From Sporocytophaga sp. (GTDB lineage Bacteria; Bacteroidota; Bacteroidia; Cytophagales; Cytophagaceae), in the NCBI RefSeq assembly GCF_017745095.1, contig NZ_JAGHZZ010000011.1, forward strand, positions 62,001-126,000: a DNA stretch of 64,000 nt, given 5' to 3'. The notes beneath the pieces were generated by a model. The model worked only from the letters and a program-made list of their open reading frames with translations, was not told the origin of the DNA and ran no database searches. Shown in pieces: positions 48,596 to 61,581 of the stretch. A program made the translations under genes and the position numbers. Each line of letters begins with the position of its first letter. Position 1 is the first letter of the stretch.

Positions 48596-49414
48596 ATGGA
48601 AATGAAATGTATTCGATTTGCATATATAGCTTTTGTCTTAGCTTTATCTTTTCTTTTTTCTTCATGTGAAAAGGTCATAGATCTTAAGCTTAAGAATTCC
48701 GATGCAGGCATTGTGATAGAAGGTGCTGTAACAGATCAGCCAGGCCCATACAGAATAAAAATCAGCAGAAAAGTTAATTTTGATCAGCCAAATGTTTTTC
48801 CTTCCGTTAGCGGGGCTTCTGTTATCATCTCAGACAATATTGGTAGCAGAGATACGTTAAAGGAAGTTAGACCCGGTGTTTATGAAACCCAATCAATAGT
48901 TGGTGTTGCGGGTAATACTTATACTTTGAGCGTTGGTGACCAAGGAAACACTTATACAGGACAGTCTGTTATGCCGTCGCCAGTAATCATTGATAGCATA
49001 TCTATAGACTATTTCCTCTTTGGTGGTCCGGATTCTGCAAAGTTTGTTAAAGTAACTTTTAAGGATCCTGAGGGAGTAAAAAATTATTACAGAATCTTGG
49101 AAGTGTTTAATGGAGATACACTCAATGGCATACATCTGGAAGATGATAATTTCAGAGATGGACAAAGAATTACACAGCCGGTATTCGAAGATGGAGAAGA
49201 TGGAAATTTTCAGACTTTCAAATCTGGCGATGTTGTTACCATACTTCTTTTATCAATCGATGAAAATACTTATAAGTATTTAAGGGGGGTTGAAGCAGTT
49301 ACCGATGGAGGTCAGTCTTCATCTCCTGCCAATCCTCCCTCAAATCTCTCAAGACCTGCATTGGGTTGTTTCAGCGCTCATGCTGTTACTTCCAGGACAA
49401 TTATAGTGAAGTAA
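48596..49414 (+). CDS. DUF4249 lipoprotein, partner of the TonB receptor
   Basis: 272 residues. The signal MEMKCIRFAYIAFVLALSFL ends at SSC (lipobox, Cys about 24), followed by EKVIDLKL and VIEGAVTDQPGPYRIKISR, the DUF4249 opening, and a beta-sandwich. It begins 7 bases after the receptor stop, so the two are translationally linked. DUF4249 proteins occur next to TonB receptors throughout Bacteroidota and are thought to be surface lids or ligand-binding partners. It is shorter than the usual 300-400 residues, mainly at the C-terminal end. Confidence 0.9.
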   Translation: MEMKCIRFAYIAFVLALSFLFSSCEKVIDLKLKNSDAGIVIEGAVTDQPGPYRIKISRKVNFDQPNVFPSVSGASVIISDNIGSRDTLKEVRPGVYETQSIVGVAGNTYTLSVGDQGNTYTGQSVMPSPVIIDSISIDYFLFGGPDSAKFVKVTFKDPEGVKNYYRILEVFNGDTLNGIHLEDDNFRDGQRITQPVFEDGEDGNFQTFKSGDVVTILLLSIDENTYKYLRGVEAVTDGGQSSSPANPPSNLSRPALGCFSAHAVTSRTIIVK

Positions 49415-49437
49415 TTATTAGTTAAGTTTTTTAATAA

Positions 49438-49470
49438 GGGAAATCAGGAATAATCCGGTTTCCCTTTTTT
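49438..49470 (+). terminator. Terminator of the receptor operon
   Basis: GGGAAATCAGG and CCGGTTTCCC form a hairpin with one G-T pair, followed by TTTTTT. Confidence 0.85.
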
Positions 49471-50119
49471 ATTGAATAAGAAATATTTATTGAATTGATA
49501 TTTGGTAACTATTTTTAAATGCTTGCGTAGCGTTTTTTATTGTTAGGAAAGGGAAGGATTTATTTCTTACAAGCAGCTACCGTAATAGAATTTTGATCTG
49601 ATTTATATATACAGTTCCATATTTCCGTTTCTATTTGTAAAAAGTTTGATAATCAGAATACATATATTCTTGGTAACAATCATTTTATAGATTAAAAATT
49701 TGGTTTTACCTATACCTTTAATGCATTAATTGATAAAGCGAAACGTTTTATTGGAAATAACGTTCATGCAATCAAATACTTCAACTACAGAATTTCAAGT
49801 AGCTAATTCTTCTTAAAGAATCTTATTTATTTAAAGTTGCAAGAATCATTATCGGTAGCACCGATAATAATTTGAAGGAAGAATTATCACAAAACCTGAG
49901 CAGAAGCATTCAAATTTACAGAAGGCCAATATGACCGGAAATTTACAAATACCACCAATTGAATTGACAGATAACAGGAGAAGTTATGAAATTAAAAATG
50001 CTGTTTCGGATGGATCTTATTCATTCCCGATCCCTTTACAATCGGTTTATGGATTGAATGATATAGTTGTGTTTTCAACAGCTTTTTCAAAATTTCAAAT
50101 AGTAATCTGCGAGTAGTGT
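49471..50119. other. Long leader region before cheR
   Basis: No gene with family resemblance. A perfect hairpin ATTATCGGT-AGC-ACCGATAAT lies at 49848-49868. A 61-codon frame at 49931-50116 ends 3 bases before cheR. It has an ATG but no recognisable features (opening MTGNLQIPPIELTDNRRSYE) and could be a leader peptide or chance. The length of the interval suggests a regulated leader. Confidence 0.4.
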
Positions 50120-50950
50120 ATGGTACAGGAGATTGGTGTTTCGGAAATAAACAGGGTTGTTTCTGTTGTTCAGGAGAAGTTTGACCTTGACTTCAGCAAT
50201 TATGCGGTATCCTCCTTCAAGAGACGTCTGGAGAGGCTGATAGAAGTTCGCAATTACAAGACTATAGATAATCTTATTTTCAAAATTGAAAATAATAACT
50301 TTAGCAAAGAAGAGTTTTTGCACGAAATCACTGTAAATGTAACAGAGATGTTCCGCGATCCTTCTTTTTGGAAAGCTATCAAGAAAGTACTGACCTTCTC
50401 GCTCGAGTCCCTTCCTAAAATTCGTATTTGGCATGCCGCCTGCTCTTCAGGTGAAGAGGTGTATTCCATGTTGATTCTATTAAAAGAAATGAATTTGCTG
50501 GATAAATGCGAGATTGTGGCTTCAGATATAGATAATATGATCCTGGCAAGAGCGAAAGATGGAACGATAGCAATGAGGAACATGGAGCTGAATTGCAAGA
50601 ACTACGCTCGTGTACATGACGATTATCAGGATTTGATGAAATATTTTAAAGCGGATGGAGAATATTGCAAATTCGACAAGTCTCTATTATCTAAGGTTTC
50701 GTTTAGAAATATTGATCTTGTGAAAGCTGAATGTACGTCTAAGTACGATATAATATTTTGCAGAAATGTTATGATCTACTTTAATCAGTCTTTGCAGTCT
50801 AAGGTATTGAATCTCCTTCATCAGAGCTTGTTTATTCACAGCTACCTTGTAGTAGGAACAAAGGAAACAATTTCTTCAGCATTGGAAGTAGCTCCCAAGT
50901 TTATCTCAGTGAATAATGAAGAAAAGATATATAAGAAAATCAAAGATTAG
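50120..50950 (+). CDS. CheR-type protein-glutamate methyltransferase
   Basis: 276 residues, full length. The N-terminal helical domain has FDLDFSNYAVSSFKRRLERL. The SAM domain has RIWHAACSSGEEVYSMLILL (motif I), IVASDIDNMILARAKDG and YDIIFCRNVMIYFN, all hallmarks of CheR. No chemoreceptor, CheA or CheB gene is nearby, so it is a stand-alone CheR that may modify a signalling protein other than a chemoreceptor. The SiaB gene follows in the same direction after 482 bases. Confidence 0.93.
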   Translation: MVQEIGVSEINRVVSVVQEKFDLDFSNYAVSSFKRRLERLIEVRNYKTIDNLIFKIENNNFSKEEFLHEITVNVTEMFRDPSFWKAIKKVLTFSLESLPKIRIWHAACSSGEEVYSMLILLKEMNLLDKCEIVASDIDNMILARAKDGTIAMRNMELNCKNYARVHDDYQDLMKYFKADGEYCKFDKSLLSKVSFRNIDLVKAECTSKYDIIFCRNVMIYFNQSLQSKVLNLLHQSLFIHSYLVVGTKETISSALEVAPKFISVNNEEKIYKKIKD

Positions 50951-51432
50951 TAAGAGTATAAGTGTTATTAAATAATACCAGAATTTGTAATTTCTCTGTT
51001 TAGCTCCTCCTAAAACTAAAAAAGCTAAGGAACTCGGATACCTTCCCTTTCAACCAGGAAAAGCTGCATGTCTTTTTTGGAGCCAATTTCTGTTGGTCAG
51101 TCCGGATATCAGATTCTTAGAGTAAGTATCCATATCGTCAATTATAGATCGTTAAATGATTCTTCATTTTCATTAGCGGGAGTGTAGGAATAACTTACAT
51201 AATTCGTTCTAGTATCAGGGGTTGGAGGAATTTGGAAGGTTTGAAAATCAGACAAATTTACTGGTCATTTATTGAAACCCTTATCAACAAGATAAAGTAT
51301 ACATGTTTCCCGTAGGCATATGTTTTTCAAGTAAAGTAGTGTGGTATTGGGGAATTTGTGAAAAATGAAACTCGTGCTTCCAGAGGTTGGAAATGCCTAT
51401 AATATTGTAACAATTAATCAATAATAATTTTT
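50951..51432. other. Interval between cheR and siaB
   Basis: No supported gene. One frame at about 51000-51125 reads like a decayed coding stretch (APPKTKKAKELGYLPFQPGK, then a stop after VSPDIRFLE), without a start or family match. No terminator or consensus promoter is obvious. siaB has a TTTTT stretch and no strong Shine-Dalgarno before it. Confidence 0.35.
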
Positions 51433-51975
51433 ATGAAATACATCTATGAAATTCACCGGATAATGTCAGACAAGAGTTTGATTCTGGTATATGAAGGAGA
51501 ATTTACACAGGAGATAACCAAGTCTGTGCTAGTGATGGCAGAGAGAAATATGGATTATACCGGTGAAGAGAGTAACATTAAAAGGAAAGTTTTTAACGTT
51601 ATGGTGGAGTGTCTTCAGAATATCTGCAAACATGCAGACAGTGTTCAGGAGAAAGAAAAAGAAGCCATTTTCATGATTGGAAAAGAATCTGATTATTATA
51701 TCATTACATCTGGTAACTATATTATAAATACAGACGTTCCATACCTGAAGAGCAAGTTGGAGAAAATAAACTCTCTGGATAAAGAAGGCCTCAAAGTACT
51801 ATATAAGGATATGATTTCTAAAAGTGAAATTTCAGATAAAGGAGGAGCTGGCCTGGGTTTTGTAGATATAGCAAGAAAGTCAGGAGAGAAACTTGAATTT
51901 GATTTCGAACCGATCAACGACGTTTATTCCTTTTTCTCTTTCAAAACATGTATTTCAAGAAGTAAAGATCTTTAA
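51433..51975 (+). CDS. siaB: SiaB family protein kinase
   Basis: 180 residues. The GHKL-like kinase fold of the SiaB/DUF6272 family is seen as VMVECLQNICKHAD (N-box-like, Glu59, Asn63, His67) and SDKGGAGLGFVDIARKSG (G-box-like, about 135-151). In Pseudomonas, SiaB phosphorylates the small protein SiaC on a threonine, while the PP2C phosphatase SiaA reverses this. The siaC homologue starts 21 bases downstream. Here the pair is followed by an ABC transporter gene instead of a diguanylate cyclase gene. Confidence 0.88.
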   Translation: MKYIYEIHRIMSDKSLILVYEGEFTQEITKSVLVMAERNMDYTGEESNIKRKVFNVMVECLQNICKHADSVQEKEKEAIFMIGKESDYYIITSGNYIINTDVPYLKSKLEKINSLDKEGLKVLYKDMISKSEISDKGGAGLGFVDIARKSGEKLEFDFEPINDVYSFFSFKTCISRSKDL

Positions 51976-51996
51976 AAATAATAATATACAATTCAT

Positions 51997-52359
51997 ATGA
52001 ATCCGATAAAAATTGAAGGTACAGAAGATACTCCAGCAGTTTGTCTAGATAAAACTATAGGTGTATTCGAAGTTTCGGGCAGATCGCTTCCTGAAGATGC
52101 TGCCGGTTTTTATGCTCCTATTCTCAAGTGGCTTGAAGGATATGCTGCTGATCCAAATCCTAAAACAGAGTTCACCATCAAGCTTGAGTATTTTAATACT
52201 GCTTCTTCTAAGCTTCTTCTTGATCTTTTGACAAGACTTGAAAAGATTTCTAATGCTAAAATTCTTTGGTACTCTTATGAGGATGATGAAGATATGCAAG
52301 AAGCTGGACAAGAATTTTCTGAATTGGTAGAAGTGCCATTTGAATTAAAAAACTTTTAA
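51997..52359 (+). CDS. siaC: SiaC family regulatory phosphoprotein (DUF1987)
   Basis: 120 residues, the family length. The core LEYFNTASSKLLLDLL contains Thr68 directly before ASSK. As I recall, the phosphorylated threonine of Pseudomonas SiaC is also number 68, in an equivalent YFNT motif. The fold resembles a STAS-like anti-anti-sigma antagonist. The gene lies between siaB (21 bases) and the ABC transporter (21 bases). It is the likely phosphorylation-controlled partner that binds a target, here perhaps the transporter. Confidence 0.92.
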   Translation: MNPIKIEGTEDTPAVCLDKTIGVFEVSGRSLPEDAAGFYAPILKWLEGYAADPNPKTEFTIKLEYFNTASSKLLLDLLTRLEKISNAKILWYSYEDDEDMQEAGQEFSELVEVPFELKNF

Positions 52360-52380
52360 TAAAGGCTACGGAAGTAAGTT

Positions 52381-55300
52381 ATGAGTGAGGAAATACTTAA
52401 GGCGCTAGCACAGTTATATGCGATCATTACCAAGCAGGACACAGGTGTAAGTGAAAAGGAAAGAAACTATGTTATAGATTCCTTCCGTTCAAAACTCGAC
52501 CAGGTAAGGCTTAAGGAATATGTAGCACTATATGATGAGTTTGCCGGAATAGATAATCAGGAAAAAAAAGACAAGCCTGAAAAACTTACTTCTGTAAAAG
52601 ATTCCGTAAGAACACTTTCTATCTGTAGGAAGATCAATAAAACGCTCGTTCAGAAGCAGAAGATAATTGTGCTTATCGAACTTCTGGAGCTCGTTCGTTC
52701 AGACGGAAATTATACGCCTCAGAGAAAACAAATTATTGAGACGGTCTCTGAAAGCTTTAATATTGAAAAGAACGAGCATGATCTCATTGAATGGTTCGTA
52801 TTTTCGAAACCTGAAGAACTAAAGACCGATAGTGCTTTCCTTTTTATCAAAAGCGAAGGCGAAGCATTGGAGCCTACTCCTAACATTATATTCAATCATC
52901 ATATCCTTGCTCCTGTAAGATTCCTTTTTCTGGAATCTGTAGATCTTATCTTCTTAAAAACAGAAGGTGAGGGCTTTACTTTAAATGGACTTCCTGTAAA
53001 TTCCGAAGAGATAAAGTTATTCCCTTATGGAAGTATACTTAAGTCCTCTATTGGTGCTACTTTCTTTTATAGTGATATCATCAGGTATTTTATAAAGGAA
53101 GAAAATAAAAAGCCCGTAACATTTAACGTAACAGATCTTGAGTATACATTTCAGTCTGGTAGGATAGGCTTGCGTGATATCAATATCTCTGAAAGAGAAG
53201 GTACCCTTATTGGTATCATGGGAGCAAGTGGCGCAGGTAAAACAACTTTGTTGAATGTTTTGTCTGGTATTGAAATCCCATCTAAAGGTCAGGTGGTGCT
53301 GAATGGAATTGATATACACAAGGAGAAGGAAAAGGCGACAGGGATAATCGGATATATCTCACAAGATGATCTTCTATTTGAAGACCTTACTGTATTTGAG
53401 AATTTATTCTATTGTGCAAAGCTTTGCTTTGACAAGCTTCCTGATGCTGAAATCAAAGAGAAAGTGGAAAGTCTTTTGGGTAGCCTTGGACTAGCTTATG
53501 TAAAAGACCTTAAAGTCGGAAGCCCTCTGGAAAAGACCATAAGTGGTGGTCAGAGAAAGAGGCTGAATATAGCCCTTGAACTGATTAGAGAACCATTGGT
53601 TCTTTTTGTGGATGAACCAACATCCGGACTTTCTTCAAGAGACTCTGAAAACGTGATTGATCTTTTGAAGGAGCTTTCTCTAAAAGGAAAATTAATTTTT
53701 GTTGTAATTCACCAACCTTCATCAGACATCTATAAGATGTTTGATAAAATGTATATTTTGGATACAGGTGGATTTCCGATATTTTATGGTAACCCGGTTG
53801 AAGGTGTTATCTATTTCAAAAAGATAGCAAATCATGCCGACGCTGAAAAAGGACAATGCTTTTCATGCGGTAATGTAAACCCTGAACAGATATTTAATAT
53901 TGTTGAAGAACAGGTTGTTGATGAATACGGTAACTTCACTGGAAAGAGAAAAATCTCTACCAGCGAATGGTATACCAGTTTTAAGAAGAATTTTGATATT
54001 TTAAAACAGAAAGACAGCACGTTTAGTCTTCCCAAGGGGCTAGATCTTCCTACTATTACCAAGCAATCAATGATATTTTTCCTGAGAGATTTAAAAGGAA
54101 AATTATCTAATAAGCAGTATCTGCTCATCAACCTTATTGAGGCTCCGCTACTGGCTTTAATCCTTAGCGTTGTAATAAGATATAAGAATACAACAAACGA
54201 ATATCTTTTCAGATTTAATGAAAATATTCCTGCGTTTATTCTGATGAGTGTAATCGTTGCGCTTTTCATGGGGCTTAGCTTAAGTGCAGAAGAAATTATC
54301 AGGGACAGGAAGATATTGAAGAGAGAAAAACTTTTAAATCTAAGTAGATTAGGTTATCTGTTGTCAAAGATTGTCATACTTTTTTCATTTTCAGCAATCC
54401 AAACATTTCTATTTGTCGTAATAGGTACACTCGTGCTGGATATCAAGGGAATGGGTATGTCTTATTGGCTGATATTGTTCTCATCATCCTGTGCCGCAAA
54501 TGTTTTAGGTCTGATAATTTCTTCAGCCTTTAATTCGGCAGTTATCGTATATATACTTATACCATTGATCCTTATACCTCAGATGATTCTCAGCGGTGCT
54601 TTATTTAGCTTTGACAAGCTGAACGATTTTCTGACAAATGATAAAAATAAGGTTCCATTTGTTGCGGATCTTATGATTTCAAGATGGGGATATGAGGCCC
54701 TTGCAGTAAGTCAGTTTAAAGATAATGAGTATCAAAGTCTCTTTTTCAAAGAGGAGCAAATAAAAGCAGTATCTGATTTTCAGCTTGCTCATGGGCTTCC
54801 TTTAGTTGAGGAGTTAGTGAAGAAGCTTCAGGAGAAAGGGGTTTCAGAAGAGGAAAGAAAAATTAAGTGGAACATAATTCTTAATGAAATAAAAAAGAAT
54901 GAACGATTGTCTGGCTTTCCCACTCTTGCTCAAATAAGTACTTTGGAAAAGGCAGGATCAACAGAAACATCTCTTGAAGCTGTTTTAGAAATGCTACCAA
55001 CACTTGATTCTTTTTATAATAAAACAGTTAATCATGCTGTGGAAGTTATGGAGCAGAAAGGATTATCCAAATCTTCCGAACTGAAAAACAGTCATTACAA
55101 TGAAAGCTTATCTGATCTTGTAAGGAACCAGAATTCAGTAGAAAGATATAAAATTTCAAAACAAGAGATATTGCCTAAAGTTGACCTGGTGTTTTTTGCA
55201 GCAAAGCCTGATGGTAATTTCGGATACAGGGCTCACTTCTATGCTCCTTCCAAATATCTTGGAAGTATTAAGTTAGACACCTTCTGGTTTAACTTGATAG

Positions 55301-55401
55301 TGCTGTGGACCATAACCGGATTGTTCTTTGCTTTCTTATACTTCGATATCCTAAGAATTATTATTGATAAATCCTCAACTATGTTACAAAAGAAAAATTA
55401 A
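52381..55401 (+). CDS. ABCG-like transporter with TerB-like and FHA-like N-terminal regions
   Basis: 1006 residues in one chain. Residues 1-145 form a helical region resembling TerB (ALAQLYAIITKQDTGVSEKE, LIELLELVRSDGNYTPQ). Residues about 165-240 are beta-rich and FHA-like in flavour (FTLNGLPVNSEEIKLFPYGS). The ATPase has Walker A GASGAGKT 281-288, signature ISGGQ 387-391 and Walker B LVLFVDEP 406-413. A cysteine pair CFSCG follows near 500, then ABC2-type helices from about 580 to 750, a long soluble insert to about 960 and a last helix. The order ATPase-then-membrane matches ABCG half-transporters, so it should dimerise. siaC is 21 bases upstream; the lipoprotein gene starts 5 bases downstream. 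Confidence 0.9.
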   Translation: MSEEILKALAQLYAIITKQDTGVSEKERNYVIDSFRSKLDQVRLKEYVALYDEFAGIDNQEKKDKPEKLTSVKDSVRTLSICRKINKTLVQKQKIIVLIELLELVRSDGNYTPQRKQIIETVSESFNIEKNEHDLIEWFVFSKPEELKTDSAFLFIKSEGEALEPTPNIIFNHHILAPVRFLFLESVDLIFLKTEGEGFTLNGLPVNSEEIKLFPYGSILKSSIGATFFYSDIIRYFIKEENKKPVTFNVTDLEYTFQSGRIGLRDINISEREGTLIGIMGASGAGKTTLLNVLSGIEIPSKGQVVLNGIDIHKEKEKATGIIGYISQDDLLFEDLTVFENLFYCAKLCFDKLPDAEIKEKVESLLGSLGLAYVKDLKVGSPLEKTISGGQRKRLNIALELIREPLVLFVDEPTSGLSSRDSENVIDLLKELSLKGKLIFVVIHQPSSDIYKMFDKMYILDTGGFPIFYGNPVEGVIYFKKIANHADAEKGQCFSCGNVNPEQIFNIVEEQVVDEYGNFTGKRKISTSEWYTSFKKNFDILKQKDSTFSLPKGLDLPTITKQSMIFFLRDLKGKLSNKQYLLINLIEAPLLALILSVVIRYKNTTNEYLFRFNENIPAFILMSVIVALFMGLSLSAEEIIRDRKILKREKLLNLSRLGYLLSKIVILFSFSAIQTFLFVVIGTLVLDIKGMGMSYWLILFSSSCAANVLGLIISSAFNSAVIVYILIPLILIPQMILSGALFSFDKLNDFLTNDKNKVPFVADLMISRWGYEALAVSQFKDNEYQSLFFKEEQIKAVSDFQLAHGLPLVEELVKKLQEKGVSEEERKIKWNIILNEIKKNERLSGFPTLAQISTLEKAGSTETSLEAVLEMLPTLDSFYNKTVNHAVEVMEQKGLSKSSELKNSHYNESLSDLVRNQNSVERYKISKQEILPKVDLVFFAAKPDGNFGYRAHFYAPSKYLGSIKLDTFWFNLIVLWTITGLFFAFLYFDILRIIIDKSSTMLQKKN

Positions 55402-55405
55402 TTGT

Positions 55406-56299
55406 ATGAAAGACAGAAGTTATATTTTACTAGCTATACTTTTATCTGCATGCAGCACTCATTCATCCACAGATGAGAGGCTAACAAATTCCATAGACTC
55501 AGCAGTAGTTGTACCTGATGTTCAGGTATCTGAAAAGACCATTCAGGGAATCATGCAATCCGTACCTTCTCCACTTGAAATTTCTACAATGATCAAAGAA
55601 TCAGGGGGAGACTATGATCGGGGAATACTTAATAAAGTGACTAATGCATCAAATTATAACAGCACTTTTAAAAAATCTATCAATCTCGGTGTTTTTAGCA
55701 CGGATCTTGGTTATATAAATATATATAGTAAAAGTTCTGATGCCCTAAGTTATATTTCCTGCGTAAAAGGAATATCGGATGATCTGGGAATTGGTCAGTT
55801 CTTTGATCTGAAGGCGTTCAAGAGACTTGCAGAGAACAATAACAATTATGATTCACTACTTCTGATTACGACTTCTACATTCGAAGATATTAACCGTTTT
55901 CTTAAGGAGAAAAAGAGATCAGAACAAAGTGTTCTTATGCTTAGCGGAGGATGGATTGAAGCACTGCACATTGCGTTGAAAGTGCATGAAGCAAATCAGA
56001 ACGAAGATTTGAAAGAAAAGATCGGAGAGCAAAAAATCGTTCTTGAAAAAATTGTATTGCTCCTTTCAAACTATAAAGCAAGACCAGAGGTGAAGGAGTT
56101 GGTGACAGATCTTGAGAAGCTGAATGAAGTTTATAAGAAAGTAGAAATCAGCTACACCTATCAAGAATCTGTAATGAAGGAAGTTGATGGAGTATTAGTG
56201 GTTGAAGATCAGACGACAAGTAAAGTCACAATTTCTGATGATCAATTAAAGCAAATTAGATCTATTGTTGCAGATCTTAGAAATAAAATTACCGTATAA
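55406..56299 (+). CDS. Lipoprotein of unknown function
   Basis: 297 residues from the ATG at 55406; an in-frame ATG at 55364 lies inside the transporter gene and is rejected. The signal MKDRSYILLAILLSAC ends in a lipobox (LSAC, Cys 16). The mature part is helical, with EISTMIKESGGDYDRGILN, FSTDLGYINIYSKSSDAL and RFLKEKKRSEQSVLMLSGGW. I do not recognise the family. The tight 5-base spacing to the transporter gene suggests it is a periplasmic or outer-membrane partner of it. Confidence 0.72.
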   Translation: MKDRSYILLAILLSACSTHSSTDERLTNSIDSAVVVPDVQVSEKTIQGIMQSVPSPLEISTMIKESGGDYDRGILNKVTNASNYNSTFKKSINLGVFSTDLGYINIYSKSSDALSYISCVKGISDDLGIGQFFDLKAFKRLAENNNNYDSLLLITTSTFEDINRFLKEKKRSEQSVLMLSGGWIEALHIALKVHEANQNEDLKEKIGEQKIVLEKIVLLLSNYKARPEVKELVTDLEKLNEVYKKVEISYTYQESVMKEVDGVLVVEDQTTSKVTISDDQLKQIRSIVADLRNKITV

Positions 56300-56325
56300 T
56301 TATTAAAGTATTAAATATTAGTTTT

Positions 56326-56736
56326 ATGAACAAGAAATCAATCTTCCTGGTATTAATATTTTTTGCTTTTACTTCTATCAAAGCATTTTCTCAGTGTAGT
56401 TCGGATGAGTGTATTGCCAAGCTAGGCGAGGGGTATACCTTTCTTAAAACCTACAAGATGGAAAGTGTGGGTGAGGAAACTGAACATTCATATGTATTCA
56501 GTAAGGAAACGAGCTATATGCTTGTACTTTGCGGAAAAGATGGCGTTAGCCAGAATGTTACTGTAACTCTTTTTGACTCAAACAGAAAGGAAATAGCAAC
56601 TAATTACGACAAGAAGAACAATAAATATTATTCTGCGATTGTGTATACCAGCAAAGCTACTGGTATGTATTACCTACGCTATTCTTTTCAAGGGGCTCAA
56701 CCTTGCTGTGTAAGTGTATTAGCATTTAAAAAATAA
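56326..56736 (+). CDS. Small secreted beta-rich protein
   Basis: 136 residues. A signal peptide ends at AFSQ (residue 22). The mature part has four cysteines (CSSDEC, LVLCGKDG and the adjacent CC in QPCCVS) and beta strands (VTLFDSNRKEIATNYD, GMYYLRYSFQG). It looks like a small bacterial pre-peptidase-type sandwich, but I cannot assign it. It is 26 bases after the lipoprotein gene in the same operon and is followed by a hairpin. Confidence 0.68.
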   Translation: MNKKSIFLVLIFFAFTSIKAFSQCSSDECIAKLGEGYTFLKTYKMESVGEETEHSYVFSKETSYMLVLCGKDGVSQNVTVTLFDSNRKEIATNYDKKNNKYYSAIVYTSKATGMYYLRYSFQGAQPCCVSVLAFKK

Positions 56737-56765
56737 TTCTAAAGGGGATTAAAATTTAAAATTGG

Positions 56766-56800
56766 TCAGGCAGATTGAAAGATCTGCCTGATTATTATTT
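56766..56800 (+). terminator. Hairpin within the locus, possible attenuator
   Basis: TCAGGCAGAT, TGAAAG, ATCTGCCTGA followed by TTATTATTT. Ten perfect pairs, with a T tract interrupted by A. It may reduce transcription into the propeller and OmpA genes and so set their ratio to the upstream genes. Confidence 0.65.
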
Positions 56801-56817
56801 CTTCAAACAGGATCAGA

Positions 56818-58182
56818 ATGAACAAATTAATTGTCAGCCTCGTATTATTCTATCTGCTGGTTCTGGCACCTGCTTATGCTCAGACTGTTTACCCTATGCT
56901 TGTGAAATCTCATGAAGAATTTCAGCATGCTATTGGGGGGGATGGAGAAGATGAGTGTATTAAAATTCTTGAGGTAAAAGACAAAGAGAAAGGATATTTG
57001 TTTTCCGGTAATACACAGGGAGTGGGCGCAGGAAAAAGAGACTTTTATTTGTCAAGAATTGACAGTGTCGGAAAATTGATGTGGACCAAGACTTATGGAG
57101 GGAAAGACAATGAATTTGGCGGTTTCGTTGAAAAAACAAATGATGACAATTTTGTCATAGTAGGTTATACTGAAAGTTTTAACAAGGATAATAACCAGAT
57201 ATTACTTATCAAAGTGGATCCAAAGGGAGCTGTTCTTTGGTCTAAAACAATAGGGCTTGATCGAAGTGTGTATGCCACTACGCTTACTGTCGTCAGAGAT
57301 GGTGGCTTTGTAATACTTGGGGAGACAATCAACAACACAAGTAAAATTAAACATTCGGATATACTTGTTACCAAAACCGATAAGGACGGTAACATTTTAT
57401 GGAGTAAGATTATAGGGGGTGAGAGAACTGATTATGGATATAGTATCTCTGAAACAATAGACCATGGTTATATTATCGGAGGTGAAACCAACAGTTTTGG
57501 AAAGGGTGACTGGGATTTCTATTTCCTAAAGCTTAAGGAGAGCGGAGATATAGAATGGACCAGAGCATTCGGAACGGATTCATCTGATTATGGAAGGGTA
57601 GCCAAGCAGGCCCCTGATGGTACTTTTATCTTGGGCGGAACTTGTGTTACAGGGAAGGATGTAGATATGGAAATTGGTCTTGTGCGCGTGGATGCTAATG
57701 GTGGTCTTCTCTGGTCGAAGACAATGGGGGGACAGAATGCAGAATATCTTCTGGATCTTATCACGTTAGACGAACTGTCTTTTGCGATAGGAGGCTATAC
57801 AAGCAGTTTTGGATTGAATCAGGAAGATGCATTTATATGCATTCTTGATTATAATGGAAAAATGAAGTGGATGAAGACCTATGGTGGTCCGCAAGAAGAT
57901 CATGGAGTGGCTCTCTGTAAAACAACCAATGAAGGAATTATTCTTGCAGGCCAAACAAGTAGCTTTAGTGCGAAAGCAAAGGATGTTATGCTAATAAAGA
58001 CTACCAGAAAATGGTCGAAATATCAGTGTAATGCAAATGTTGTAGTTCCTACTTCAGAAAAGTTTACTTCTAAAGTATTGTATGGGGGAACTCAAACAGA
58101 GGTAAGAATGAATTTATATGATGTAGATATATCGATTTCTGATGTTAAATTCTCGGAAAGAACTTTATGTGTACCTTATTAA
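56818..58182 (+). CDS. Secreted beta-propeller repeat protein
   Basis: 454 residues. A signal peptide ends near AYAQ. At least six repeats of about 50 residues follow, each with a WxKTYGG or WSKxIGG strand and a D-GG-F-V-L-G-T strand (WTKTYGGKDNEFGG, WSKTMGGQNAEY). This is typical of bacterial propellers built from SBBP-like or Kelch-like blades. It ends with a 55-residue domain (VVPTSEKFTSKVLYGGTQTE) and has no T9SS sorting domain, unlike the propeller at 2487-3932. It is probably periplasmic or outer-membrane associated. Confidence 0.78.
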   Translation: MNKLIVSLVLFYLLVLAPAYAQTVYPMLVKSHEEFQHAIGGDGEDECIKILEVKDKEKGYLFSGNTQGVGAGKRDFYLSRIDSVGKLMWTKTYGGKDNEFGGFVEKTNDDNFVIVGYTESFNKDNNQILLIKVDPKGAVLWSKTIGLDRSVYATTLTVVRDGGFVILGETINNTSKIKHSDILVTKTDKDGNILWSKIIGGERTDYGYSISETIDHGYIIGGETNSFGKGDWDFYFLKLKESGDIEWTRAFGTDSSDYGRVAKQAPDGTFILGGTCVTGKDVDMEIGLVRVDANGGLLWSKTMGGQNAEYLLDLITLDELSFAIGGYTSSFGLNQEDAFICILDYNGKMKWMKTYGGPQEDHGVALCKTTNEGIILAGQTSSFSAKAKDVMLIKTTRKWSKYQCNANVVVPTSEKFTSKVLYGGTQTEVRMNLYDVDISISDVKFSERTLCVPY

Positions 58183-58227
58183 TATCGCTTAGAATGGCTA
58201 TAAGTTAATTATTGAATTGTCGTAAGT

Positions 58228-60315
58228 ATGAAACGCTTATTTAAAATATATCTCTTATTGGTGTTGTTGTGCGTTTCCGGCTCAGCATTCTCACAAACAG
58301 AGCAATTGATTCAAGTTGCCGACGAGGTTTATAACTTCGGTGACATTAAAGATGCATTGGAGATTTATAAACAAGTACTGGAGCTTGACTCCCTGCATGT
58401 AAAGGCTAACTACATGGCCGGTAAATGTTATATTGAAACTATCAGTAAAGAAAAGTCTCTACCCTACTTGCTCAAGGCATATGACCTAGATCACAAATAT
58501 GCAGCCAATATTCTTTACCTCATCGGACTTTCTTACCATTATAATTACTCATTTGAACAGGCTATAGGTTTTTATAAACAATACATTGAAAAGCTTGAAT
58601 CTGGGGTTTATAGCAAGGATTATAATAATGACAAGGTCATGGAGGAGCTAAAGAAAACCAACAGAAGGATAGATGAATGTAACACAGCCCTTGTTATGGT
58701 TAAGAATCCTGTTCATGTAAAAGTTGAGAATCTTGGTAAAGAAATAAACTCTGAATTCCCTGACTATGCTCCGGTTATTTCTGCGGATCAAAAGGTAATG
58801 TTCTTTACATCTAGAAGAAAAGGTAGTATCGGTGGTAACAAAGATAAAGACAACGAATTCTTTGAAGATGTTTACTTCTCTCACGGAAGCAATGGTAAAT
58901 GGAATGAAGCGGAAAACGTTGGAACAAAAATTAACTCTAAACTACATGAATCAAGCATTGGTCTTAGCCATGATGGTAAGCAGCTTTTCGTTTATGTAGA
59001 TAATGATAAAAATAAAGGTGATATCTTCTATTGCTTTATTGATGCAAACAATGAATGGTCGTCACCAAAGCCTTTTGGGAAACCTGTAAATTCTGAATTT
59101 ATTGAGAACGCAATTACAATTTCAGAAGATGGTAACACTGTTGTTTTTAGCAGTAATAGAAAAGGTGGAAAAGGAGGCTTAGATTTATACATTTCTACAA
59201 GAAAGAGTAAAAATGCCAATTGGAGCGAGCCTCAGAATATAAGTGCCATTAACTCTGAGTATGATGATGAGTCACCTTATATTACGGGGAAGACACTTTA
59301 CTTTAGCTCTAAAGGGCATGAGGGTATGGGAGGATATGACCTGTTCAAATCTGAATTTGATTCAACCTCTTCTACATGGAGTAAACCAGAGAACCTTGGT
59401 CACCCTATTAACTCAGCCGATGATGATTTTTCTATTGTGGTGGCTGATGGAGGTAAAATTGGTTATATAGCTTCTGTAAAAAAAGAAGGTTTCGGGAACA
59501 TGGATATCTATAAAGTTTTTTTTGAAGAAAAGCCAAAGGAACAGCCCAAAGAAGAACTAGCTCAAAAGACTGAAGAGAAGAAACCTGAAGAGAAAAAATC
59601 TGAAAAGAAAACTCAGTCCCTTTCTCCGAAAAATGAGTTGTTTAAATCTGCTCCCGTCGCTAAAAAGGAAGTAGTTAAGGGATATAAGCTCATCATAAAC
59701 GTATACGATGCAGTTTCTAAAGATCCTTTGAATGCTTCAATTAAGTTAAATTTTTCAGACCCTAATGCAGGATTGATAGAGGCTAAATGTGTAGCAGGAA
59801 AATTTTCTAAAGAATATAAAGTAAAACCATCTTCAAATTTGGCTATTTCTGTTGATTATACCGGTTATGTATTTTCTACAGCCAATGTAGCTTTAAATGA
59901 TTCTGTTATCACTAAGAGTTTTTATATGGAAAAAATCAAGGAAGGTGTTTCCAGAATTTTGAGAAACATATACTTTGATTTTGATAAGGCTACTTTAAAA
60001 AGTGAGTCAAATTCAGAACTTAATAACTTATATAAATTCCTTACAGCAAATGCTGGTGTAAAAGTCAGAATAGATGGACATACTGACAGCAAAGGCTCTC
60101 AACAGTATAACAATTCATTATCACAGAAGAGATCTGAAGAAGTAGTTAATTGGCTGGTATCAAAAGGAATATCCAGAGATAGGGTATCAGCAAAAGGATT
60201 TGGCGAAAGCAAGCCACTCGCAAGTAACGATGATGAAGATGAAGGAAGAGAACTTAACCGAAGAACGGAGTTTGTCATCCTTGAAAATTCAAGCACAGCA
60301 ACATCTTTCAAATAA
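58228..60315 (+). CDS. PorE-like TPR-PD40-OmpA envelope protein
   Basis: 695 residues. A signal peptide (to about residue 22, AFSQ) is followed by TPRs (about 25-150, YNFGDIKDALEIYKQVLELD) and PD40 propeller blades (about 165-420, FPDYAPVISADQKVMFFTSR and similar). A Lys/Glu/Pro linker and a carboxypeptidase-regulatory-like beta domain (about 487-575) precede OmpA/MotB (about 580-690, YFDFDKATLKSES, RIDGHTDSKGS, LNRRTEF). This order is that of PorE, the peptidoglycan-binding T9SS component. PorE is a lipoprotein, but no lipobox is visible here. It could be a PorE paralogue dedicated to this locus. Confidence 0.9.
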   Translation: MKRLFKIYLLLVLLCVSGSAFSQTEQLIQVADEVYNFGDIKDALEIYKQVLELDSLHVKANYMAGKCYIETISKEKSLPYLLKAYDLDHKYAANILYLIGLSYHYNYSFEQAIGFYKQYIEKLESGVYSKDYNNDKVMEELKKTNRRIDECNTALVMVKNPVHVKVENLGKEINSEFPDYAPVISADQKVMFFTSRRKGSIGGNKDKDNEFFEDVYFSHGSNGKWNEAENVGTKINSKLHESSIGLSHDGKQLFVYVDNDKNKGDIFYCFIDANNEWSSPKPFGKPVNSEFIENAITISEDGNTVVFSSNRKGGKGGLDLYISTRKSKNANWSEPQNISAINSEYDDESPYITGKTLYFSSKGHEGMGGYDLFKSEFDSTSSTWSKPENLGHPINSADDDFSIVVADGGKIGYIASVKKEGFGNMDIYKVFFEEKPKEQPKEELAQKTEEKKPEEKKSEKKTQSLSPKNELFKSAPVAKKEVVKGYKLIINVYDAVSKDPLNASIKLNFSDPNAGLIEAKCVAGKFSKEYKVKPSSNLAISVDYTGYVFSTANVALNDSVITKSFYMEKIKEGVSRILRNIYFDFDKATLKSESNSELNNLYKFLTANAGVKVRIDGHTDSKGSQQYNNSLSQKRSEEVVNWLVSKGISRDRVSAKGFGESKPLASNDDEDEGRELNRRTEFVILENSSTATSFK

Positions 60316-60338
60316 TGGAAAGATGTTGCCGTATTTTT
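60298..60338 (+). terminator. Terminator overlapping the end of the OmpA-like gene
   Basis: GCAACATCTTTC and GAAAGATGTTGC (12 perfect pairs) enclose the stop codon; CGTATTTTTA follows. It closes the whole plus-strand locus. Confidence 0.85.
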
Positions 60339-60528
60339 ACTTTAGTTGATTTTTTCCTAAGGATTATCTTAGCCAATTTAATAATCAAAAACTTATCGGG
60401 ATGCAGAGGTTGATTTGATAAAAAATATTGAACCTGTTGCTTCTCGGTTTAAACTTTTAACTTAATAATTTCTAGAATAGATAAAAGCTTTGTTTTATGC
60501 CTTCTTATTGATCCAAATAAGGAGATTG

Positions 60529-61581
60529 TTAATTAGCAAGAGTATCTTTTATTTCGGCTGGGTTTTCTCTTGAGAAAGCATTTAGATACCTTTCTACAAC
60601 TTCGTAAATTACAATTTCAGGCTTTACTTCTTCTATAACTTTATAATCAAAACTATTCCATTGATGATGTCGTTCTGTGACGTTAAAATGATTTGTAAAG
60701 AACGGCCTTAAAAACTTGTAATAAGAATCATGAAAGAGGACAATATTTTTTTTTGCCAGGTTTCTGTTGTTGATCAGTTCAAAATTGTATTTATAATCTT
60801 TAAAATCCTTTTCAAGGTTTACCATTTCGGCAAGATCATTTCCTCCTACCTCTTCCTGAATGATTTTATAATCTGTAATGGGAATCGGTTTAAGCTCAGG
60901 ATACTTTGCAGATAACTTGTTAAAGATTTCTGTATAGCCTATAAAGCCTCCATAATGTGTCCAGTGGGAGTCTGTTTTATAATAGAGAAAATGCTTCCCA
61001 TCTTTTGCTTTGGTCAAAGCTTCTCTTAAATCAATTATATTTAAATCGGTGTTCTTTTTTAAATAGGATAAAATTTGATCTGCGACAGTAACTCCTTTTT
61101 TGTATGGGAAATATTCAGGATAGACGGTCTGCTTGTTAGGGCACATGATAATGTAAAAATCAATATTTCTTTTCTTTAGCCATCTTTTTTGAGCTTCCAG
61201 GTTATGCTTGATTTTTAAAAGGGATGTATCTGCAATTATTTGCTGACCTGTAAAGCTTTCAATTGCATATCCGTCTCCCTTCCCTGAATAATATAACCAA
61301 TCATCAGAGCCTTGGATTACAGTAGGTGTAATATTAGTTTCTTTTAAAATTTTTGTTTTTATGTAATAATAAGAACTAATAAGCTCTCGCTTTAATGTTA
61401 AAGAATCTGTTAGAAGAGTTTCATAAGCAGAAATCTTTGCTTTAAAGGTTTGTGGCTTTTCTTCAGGGCTAGGGGCTTTTTGATTATTTAATGTATTCAG
61501 AAATAATAAACAAGGGATGAAAAGTAATATTGCGAATATCGTTACAAGGAATATATCACTTGTTTTATATCTGTTTTTCAT
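60529..61581 (-). CDS. AlgX/AlgJ-like SGNH-type acetyltransferase partner
   Basis: 350 residues from the ATG at 61581; an upstream in-frame start at 61629 would overlap the MBOAT gene by 41 bases. One N-terminal membrane anchor (IFLVTIFAILLFIPCLLFL) is followed by an ALGX/ALGJ domain: GSDDWLYYSGKGDGY, then DSHWTHYGGFIGY with the catalytic Asp-x-His, and VLFHDSYYKFLRPF with the serine. It would transfer acetyl groups in the periplasm onto a polysaccharide, supplied by the MBOAT protein encoded 8 bases upstream. Confidence 0.88.
   Translation of the reverse strand: MKNRYKTSDIFLVTIFAILLFIPCLLFLNTLNNQKAPSPEEKPQTFKAKISAYETLLTDSLTLKRELISSYYYIKTKILKETNITPTVIQGSDDWLYYSGKGDGYAIESFTGQQIIADTSLLKIKHNLEAQKRWLKKRNIDFYIIMCPNKQTVYPEYFPYKKGVTVADQILSYLKKNTDLNIIDLREALTKAKDGKHFLYYKTDSHWTHYGGFIGYTEIFNKLSAKYPELKPIPITDYKIIQEEVGGNDLAEMVNLEKDFKDYKYNFELINNRNLAKKNIVLFHDSYYKFLRPFFTNHFNVTERHHQWNSFDYKVIEEVKPEIVIYEVVERYLNAFSRENPAEIKDTLAN

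What the first reader, a model, noticed from the sequence alone, without database searches (positions are those of the whole stretch)
51433..60315. SiaB/SiaC partner switch wired to an ABC transporter and exported envelope proteins: candidate undescribed system
siaB, siaC, a 1006-residue ABC transporter and a lipoprotein gene are spaced by 21, 21 and 5 bases. A small secreted protein, a propeller and a PorE-like TPR-PD40-OmpA protein follow on the same strand, up to one strong terminator. In Pseudomonas the SiaB kinase and SiaC phosphoprotein control a diguanylate cyclase; no cyclase is present here. I propose that SiaC, switched at Thr68, gates the transporter through its TerB/FHA-like N-terminus, and that the exported proteins form its envelope arm. 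Sequence and spacing are seen; the mechanism is inference.
Basis: partly seen in the sequence, partly recalled or inferred. Interest (0 to 1): 0.75.

Follow-up and report, generated by a model that had tools for sequence, protein, structure and literature searches.

The report
Threonine-phosphorylation switch operon with ABC exporter
A bacterial on/off switch that in Pseudomonas drives an enzyme making a signal molecule is, in many bacteria of an order where that kind of enzyme is hardly ever found, encoded in one conserved gene cluster with a membrane exporter and its envelope proteins, which suggests that the switch controls the exporter directly.

Summary
The core of the finding is real. 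siaB-siaC-ABC-lipoprotein-small secreted protein is one conserved unit. In 80 named relatives found through the ABC N-terminus, siaC lies upstream of the ABC gene in 77 of 78 countable cases; the lipoprotein (75/76) and small protein (72/73) follow. In the window's genome a homologue of it sits on another contig with a second siaB-siaC pair. The propeller and PorE-like genes are not part of the unit (0/65, 1/60); a terminator (56763-56794) separates them. GGDEF was found in 1 of 148 order genomes, not in this one, while 95 carry SiaC. T68 is kept in 79/79 copies. Operon-type SiaC is its own clade, with Ala for S69. ABC residues specific to the SiaC-linked class concentrate in the TerB domain; the FHA reading is not supported. 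Best model: unphosphorylated SiaC binds TerB and gates export. Contact, gating and substrate are inferred. New variant of the SiaABC partner switch with a transporter as putative output.

The parts
51433..51975 (+). siaB: SiaB-family protein kinase (180 aa)
   Evidence: NF038262 SiaB_fam_kinase 1.1e-50, 171.6 bits against cut-off 85; PF19788 4e-44; upstream of the ABC gene in 70/73 named relatives
51997..52359 (+). siaC: SiaC regulatory phosphoprotein (120 aa) with N67-T68-A69
   Evidence: PF09345 3e-37; sequence match to P. aeruginosa SiaC chains 6kko/6k4f 2e-13; T68 in 79/79 aligned copies; upstream of the ABC gene in 77/78 named relatives
52381..55401 (+). ABCG-type ABC transporter (1006 aa): TerB about 1-141, small beta domain 153-229, ATPase about 247-485, membrane part from about 559, helical insert 785-915
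   Evidence: Pfam TerB, ABC_tran, ABC2_membrane; AlphaFold2 model pLDDT 81.4; Foldseek to human ABCG5/G8, ABCG2 and plant ABCG16; Walker, signature and His residues invariant in the 51 aligned sequences
52381..52815 (+). TerB domain of the transporter (residues 1-145), proposed SiaC dock
   Evidence: TerB Pfam match in 30/30 relatives; 9 of 36 conserved sites specific to the SiaC-linked class, against 18 of 313 elsewhere. The domain itself is not specific: TerB also matches in 9/9 relatives without linked SiaC, 8 over the cut-off
55406..56299 (+). lipoprotein of an unnamed family (297 aa, lipobox LSAC by eye)
   Evidence: sequence; no Pfam match at E<=0.1; downstream of ABC in 75/76 named relatives; mostly helical model with C-terminal strands, pLDDT 83.4, no PDB fold match at E<=0.001
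56326..56736 (+). small secreted protein (136 aa) with conserved cysteines
   Evidence: signal-peptide-like start by eye; conserved core; 72/73 named relatives
56763..56794 (+). terminator-like hairpin that ends the unit
   Evidence: 14-pair stem, 5 G-C; kept in 3/3 genus members aligned; a terminator-like hairpin follows the small-protein gene in 43/71 named relatives, against 0/71 after the lipoprotein and 1/74 after the ABC gene

Best explanation
The locus is the exporter half of a conserved operon siaA-siaB-siaC-ABC-lipoprotein-small protein. SiaA (sensor part with GAF and PAS domains, then a PP2C phosphatase) and SiaB (kinase) set the phosphorylation of SiaC at Thr68. Unphosphorylated SiaC binds the cytoplasmic TerB domain of the ABCG-type exporter and switches it on, as unphosphorylated SiaC binds and activates the cyclase SiaD in Pseudomonas; phosphorylation releases it. 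The exporter, through its periplasmic helical insert, hands a hydrophobic or cell-surface substrate to the lipoprotein, with the small secreted protein as a further envelope part. In the window's genus the phosphatase lies apart, with a duplicate siaB-siaC pair. Shown here: gene set, order, conservation, a terminator-like end, T68, no detectable GGDEF enzyme, co-distribution, separate SiaC and ABC clades. Inferred: transcription as one unit, the SiaC-TerB contact, its sign, the substrate, and the place of the two exported proteins.
For: Gene order in 80 named relatives chosen by the ABC N-terminus: SiaC 77/78, SiaB 70/73, PP2C 67/71, lipoprotein 75/76, small 72/73. In unnamed order genomes, 55 of 101 ABC loci examined (79 genomes, window included) have SiaC upstream on the same strand. 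All 51 SiaC-adjacent rows in the ABC tree (of 52; truncated L088 left out) lie in one clade of 60 rows. Co-distribution: 90 both, 5 SiaC only, 2 ABC only, 51 neither, of 148. GGDEF in 1 of 148, a genome without SiaC. Terminator-like hairpin after the small gene in 43/71, against 0/71, 1/74, 5/77 and 0/70 after lipo, ABC, siaC and siaB. T68 and N67 79/79. Operon-type SiaC separates from 20 other SiaC copies (support 100/98), with the C29 copy sister to the window copy. S69, which contacts SiaD in Pseudomonas (PMC8457831 section 8), is Ala in 76/78 operon copies and Ser in 19/20 others. Class-specific conserved ABC residues concentrate in TerB.
Against: No interaction data and no complex prediction. 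TerB also matches in 9/9 ABC relatives without linked SiaC that I scanned (8 over the cut-off), so it cannot be only a SiaC dock. The TerB test compares related sequences; its p is 0.0006 given conservation but 0.0097 by length, seven regions were tried, and the control class is more diverse. A strict SiaD-type motif search found nothing in the operon loci; a loose one gave one TerB hit, S-E-S-F-N at 123-127, that I do not find convincing. In six members of the SiaC-linked ABC clade with readable flanks (L057, L061, L067, L070, L074, L086) siaC is not adjacent. ABC-lipo-small also occurs without siaBC next to it in one genus (L221, L224).
Confidence: 0.47

Rival explanations
1. Co-regulation only: the Sia proteins and the exporter serve one response and are co-transcribed, but SiaC does not touch the transporter. 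SiaC controls, for example, a sigma-factor or cyclic-nucleotide output elsewhere.
For: Partner switches typically involve anti-sigma factors (passage of PMC7647112). In six members of the SiaC-linked ABC clade with readable flanks siaC is not adjacent.
Against: Separate SiaC and ABC clades, tight co-distribution and class-specific TerB residues.
Confidence: 0.27
2. The transporter is the sensor, not the target: export flux or ATPase state is passed through TerB to SiaB/SiaC/SiaA, and SiaC acts on an unlinked target.
For: Conserved operon and TerB-specific residues fit either direction. Some other SiaC copies in the order sit beside a different putative partner, a coiled-coil membrane protein.
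Against: SiaA already carries GAF and PAS sensor domains. The own genome has neither a GGDEF nor a coiled-coil partner match, so no other target is in sight.
Confidence: 0.15
3. One reading: phospho-Thr68 of SiaC is read by an FHA-like domain of the transporter, and the propeller and OmpA-like proteins form the envelope arm.
For: An FHA-containing ABC transporter encoded with a Ser/Thr kinase exists (Rv1747/PknF; starts of the abstracts of PMC5549992 and PMC3908365). The model has short strands at residues 153-229.
Against: FHA Pfam match 0 of 30; 1 class-specific site in that part; phosphorylation of T68 blocks SiaD binding in Pseudomonas; propeller 0/65 and PorE-like 1/60 in named relatives; terminator in between.
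Confidence: 0.06

Closest known systems
SiaABCD of Pseudomonas aeruginosa (PMC7647112: passages; PMC8457831: passages and section 8)
   Same: PP2C phosphatase, SiaB kinase, SiaC with Thr68 in N-T-(S/A), genes siaA-siaB-siaC followed by a putative effector gene
   Different: The following gene is an ABC exporter plus lipoprotein and secreted protein instead of the GGDEF cyclase SiaD; S69 is Ala in 76/78 operon copies
Rv1747/PknF of mycobacteria (ABC transporter with FHA domains in an operon with a Ser/Thr kinase; PMC3908365 and PMC5549992, starts of abstracts in a search listing)
   Same: ABC exporter with an N-terminal regulatory region, encoded with a Ser/Thr phosphorylation system
   Different: TerB instead of recognisable FHA; the kinase is of the SiaB family and acts, by homology, on a small switch protein
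Eukaryotic ABCG half-transporters (ABCG5/G8, ABCG2, plant ABCG16 and others)
   Same: ATPase-then-membrane order and fold (Foldseek, the 50 best of 1473 shown: target TM about 0.65-0.80)
   Different: Extra TerB and beta domains at the N-terminus; a helical insert of about 130 residues before the last membrane helix

Membership tests
SiaABC partner switch | SiaB-family kinase | tested here: met
   NF038262 171.6 bits, cut-off 85; the narrower equivalog NF038264 kinase_SiaB is below its cut-off (81.3 of 225)
SiaABC partner switch | SiaC phosphoprotein with Thr68 | tested here: met
   PF09345 127 bits; T68 79/79; the narrower equivalog NF038265 is below its cut-off (70.9 of 150)
SiaABC partner switch | SiaA-type PP2C phosphatase in the operon | tested here: inconclusive
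   present in 67/71 named relatives; in the window's genome the homologue is on contig C29, not in the window
SiaABCD (c-di-GMP) | diguanylate cyclase SiaD as output | tested here: not met
   GGDEF 0 in own genome, 1/148 in the order
SiaABC partner switch | SiaB phosphorylates and SiaA dephosphorylates SiaC | not testable with these tools
   needs biochemistry
ABCG-type ABC exporter | ATPase motifs and ABC-2 membrane part in one chain, ATPase first | tested here: met
FHA-ABC exporter (Rv1747-like) | FHA domain | tested here: not met
   0/30 Pfam FHA at E<=0.05; the fold of this part alone was not searched
T9SS PorE / CHU_0125 family (58228-60315) | score over the family cut-off | tested here: not met
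   CHU_0125 296.8 of 620 and PorE 243.5 of 600 bits

The most novel reading that the evidence does not exclude
Across much of a bacterial order the SiaABC threonine partner switch has been rewired from cyclic-di-GMP synthesis to direct, phosphorylation-dependent gating of an ABCG-type exporter through a TerB domain, with a dedicated lipoprotein and secreted protein: a partner switch whose output is membrane export.
Probability: 0.43. Interest if true: 0.78.

Novelty: new variant of a known kind. Interest (0 to 1): 0.62.

Why it matters
In the papers I saw, SiaC is described as the activator of a diguanylate cyclase, yet SiaC is found in 95 of 148 genomes of an order where GGDEF was detected in only one. 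This operon offers a concrete, testable answer to what SiaC does there. If true, it adds membrane transport to the outputs of partner switches, gives a role to a TerB domain, and gives a handle on an exporter-lipoprotein pair with no assigned function.

Tried and rejected
Rejected: propeller and PorE-like genes as members. FHA as phosphothreonine reader. A SiaD-like S-D-x-x-Q motif in the transporter: the strict pattern gave nothing in the operon loci, the loose one three sites in the ABC, one of them in TerB at 123-127, which I did not find convincing. G192 (L217), outside the order, has siaB-siaC converging on ABC-small-lipo, but its SiaC falls in the other clade and has S69, so I do not count it as the same lineage.

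Led nowhere: PDB sequence search with the N-terminal profile (0 hits); PDB fold search of the lipoprotein (nothing at E<=0.001); Rfam in 49400-61000 (0). Literature searches on TerB-ABC and on SiaC with Bacteroidetes, transporters or family names listed no paper whose title or start of abstract describes this operon. Searches listed only part of their hits (5 of 409,686; 20 of 41; 8 of 6,952; 10 of 18).

Limits of the counts. The two locus sets overlap (L121 and G096:C293 look like one contig, by length), so they are not independent. Labelling profiles were built from the first set. In one search a gene found near a contig end was counted, whereas a missing one near an end was set aside, which favours high fractions; only the same strand was counted. 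I fetched neighbourhoods of 100 ABC matches plus the window, mostly the best-scoring, not all that one search found. The 20 'other' SiaC copies were picked by hand from high-scoring lists and include one from outside the order. The SiaC tree used 40 of 78 operon copies; its bootstrap had not settled and it warns of long branches. The ABC tree is a quick one with SH-aLRT support only. In one search the SiaC-linked class was 58 rows including 7 clade members without siaC directly adjacent (in L041 siaC lies about 2 kb upstream) against 20 rows; L077 and L083 (contig edges) and L088 (truncated) were left out.

Full report
What is in the window. siaB (51433-51975), siaC (51997-52359) and a 1006-residue ABC transporter gene (52381-55401) are spaced by 21 bases each; a lipoprotein gene follows after 4 bases and a small secreted protein gene after 26. 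The ABC chain has a TerB domain, an ATPase and an ABC-2 membrane part. A strong terminator-like hairpin lies at 56763-56794, before the propeller gene, and a second one follows the PorE-like gene. The first hairpin is kept in both other genus members that I aligned.

Whole-genome context. The own genome (6.6 Mb, 64 contigs) has two SiaC and two SiaB matches, no GGDEF match (the same search rings in 8 of 14 control genomes) and five SpoIIE-type PP2C matches. The second siaB-siaC pair (contig C29, locus L003) lies directly behind a 905-residue protein with GAF, two PAS stretches and PP2C; its HAMP match is below the Pfam cut-off.

Order-wide conservation. Of 148 genomes of the order, 95 have SiaC, 92 have this ABC family at E<=1e-60, and 90 have both (Fisher p 3e-31, not corrected for relatedness). 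Of the five with SiaC only, G033, G092 and G145 are under 90% complete, as is G110 of the two with the ABC only. I read the surroundings of 100 ABC matches plus the window (79 genomes): 55 have SiaC upstream on the same strand. Most titles name taxa such as Marivirga, Fulvivirga, Chryseolinea, Ohtaekwangia and Rhodocytophaga; the three that I looked up are Cytophagales. Some metagenome titles say only Bacteroidetes or Bacteroidia, and three say Bacteroides, Chitinophaga or Chitinophagales. There the order is PP2C-siaB-siaC-ABC-lipo-small: 67/71, 70/73, 77/78, 75/76 and 72/73; propeller 0/65, PorE-like 1/60. Terminator-like hairpins follow the small gene in 43/71 and rarely the inner genes (0/71 after lipo, 1/74 after ABC, 5/77 after siaC, 0/70 after siaB).

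Outside the order. In 296 genomes drawn from the phylum the ABC rings in 8: four of the order (own included), one of the class (G192), and three over the ATPase-membrane part only. SiaC rings in 18.

The rewiring. GGDEF is found in 1 of 148 order genomes, and that one has no SiaC. Operon SiaC plus the C29 copy form one side of a 100/98 branch against 20 other SiaC copies; the C29 copy is the sister of the window copy (99/93), which suggests a duplication of the operon type. The operon PP2C aligns over most of its length with the C29 phosphatase, which is shorter at its N-terminus (905 residues against a median of 1148). I read this as the operon having split in this genus. The ABC tree gives one clade of 60 rows holding all 51 SiaC-adjacent rows used. 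Its other nine rows are L041 (siaC about 2 kb upstream, a sensor-like gene between), two cut by contig ends (L077, L083), and six with siaC not adjacent (L057, L061, L067, L070, L074, L086).

Mechanism. In Pseudomonas, SiaB phosphorylates and SiaA dephosphorylates SiaC at T68; unphosphorylated SiaC binds the stalk helices of the cyclase through, among others, Y65, N67, T68, S69 and I71, and phosphorylation prevents this (PMC7647112 passages; PMC8457831 section 8). Y65, N67 and T68 are kept in 79/79 copies, but S69 is Ala in 76/78 operon copies, against Ser in 19/20 others. The ABC lacks a clear SiaD-type motif. This fits a changed partner surface. Of 349 ABC positions conserved in the SiaC-linked class, 27 differ from the class without linked SiaC; 9 of these are among the 36 conserved TerB positions (p 0.0006 given conservation, 0.0097 by length), 8 among 139 in the ATPase, and 1 among 18 in the beta domain. 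I therefore place the contact on TerB, as inference. Against this, TerB is present in 9/9 relatives without linked SiaC (8 over the cut-off), relatedness inflates the test, and the control class is more diverse.

Exported parts. The transporter model (pLDDT 81.4) matches ABCG5/G8, ABCG2 and plant ABCG transporters, with a helical insert at 785-915 before the last membrane helix. Among ABC relatives without siaC, a lipoprotein of the same family lies upstream in 10 of the 20 tree rows outside the clade and in 5 of 18 unlinked loci of the second set, downstream in 4 of those 18. ABC plus lipoprotein thus looks like the older core, to which the Sia switch was added in one clade (inference). The lipoprotein model (pLDDT 83.4) has no PDB fold match at E<=0.001. 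The substrate is unknown.

Status of the claims. Shown: gene content, order, conservation, terminator-like end, no detectable GGDEF enzyme, T68, clade structure. Inferred: transcription as one unit, SiaC-TerB binding, activation by the unphosphorylated form, export of a surface or lipid-like substrate. I found no paper describing this operon, in an open-access library and from titles and starts of abstracts only. One paper holding SiaB and SiaC (PMC9239204, one passage) mentions only the Pseudomonas pathway there.

Noticed in passing
L209:2512-3021 (-), L198:2469-2981 (-), L199:2436-2942 (-), L211:3315-3797 (+), L212:2199-2813 (-): Five other siaB-siaC sets of the order are followed by a coiled-coil membrane protein of 160-204 residues whose helix carries I-T-K-V-S-D-(R/K)-L-Q (V-Q-K-V-G-D-K-L-Q in L212), resembling the SiaD stalk contacts V78, R80, I81, S82, D83, R84, Q86 of PMC8457831 section 8, with no Pfam match in L209. 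Relatives in 43 of 148 order genomes, not in the window's own. A probable second SiaC output without a cyclase.
   Followed up: partly
L198:2974-3939 (-), L199:2935-3903 (-), L200:2421-3410 (+), L201:2358-3401 (+), L202:2995-3984 (-): SiaB and SiaC in one reading frame of about 320-350 residues in two families of the order.
   Followed up: no
table: SiaC copy number reaches 27 in single genomes (G047, G102), in an order where GGDEF was found in 1 of 148 genomes.
   Followed up: no
L041:11447-13453 (-): A HAMP-GAF sensor-like gene (dCache match below cut-off) without PP2C lies between siaC and the ABC gene in a member of the window's family.
   Followed up: partly
window 56818-60315; L068:14347-17871: The SBBP-like propeller and PorE/CHU_0125-like genes follow the operon in the window genus (3 loci) and in one other genus (6 loci; one more gene between in the three loci listed), beyond a terminator in the window and in L068: recurrent neighbours, not part of the unit.
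   Followed up: partly
L217:5272-10698: Outside the order, siaB-siaC converge on an ABC-small-lipo set on the other strand, but the SiaC is of the other clade: an independent juxtaposition or chance.
   Followed up: partly
window 50120-50950: CheR-type methyltransferase gene about 480 bases upstream of siaB on the same strand; no CheB or receptor was looked for.
   Followed up: no
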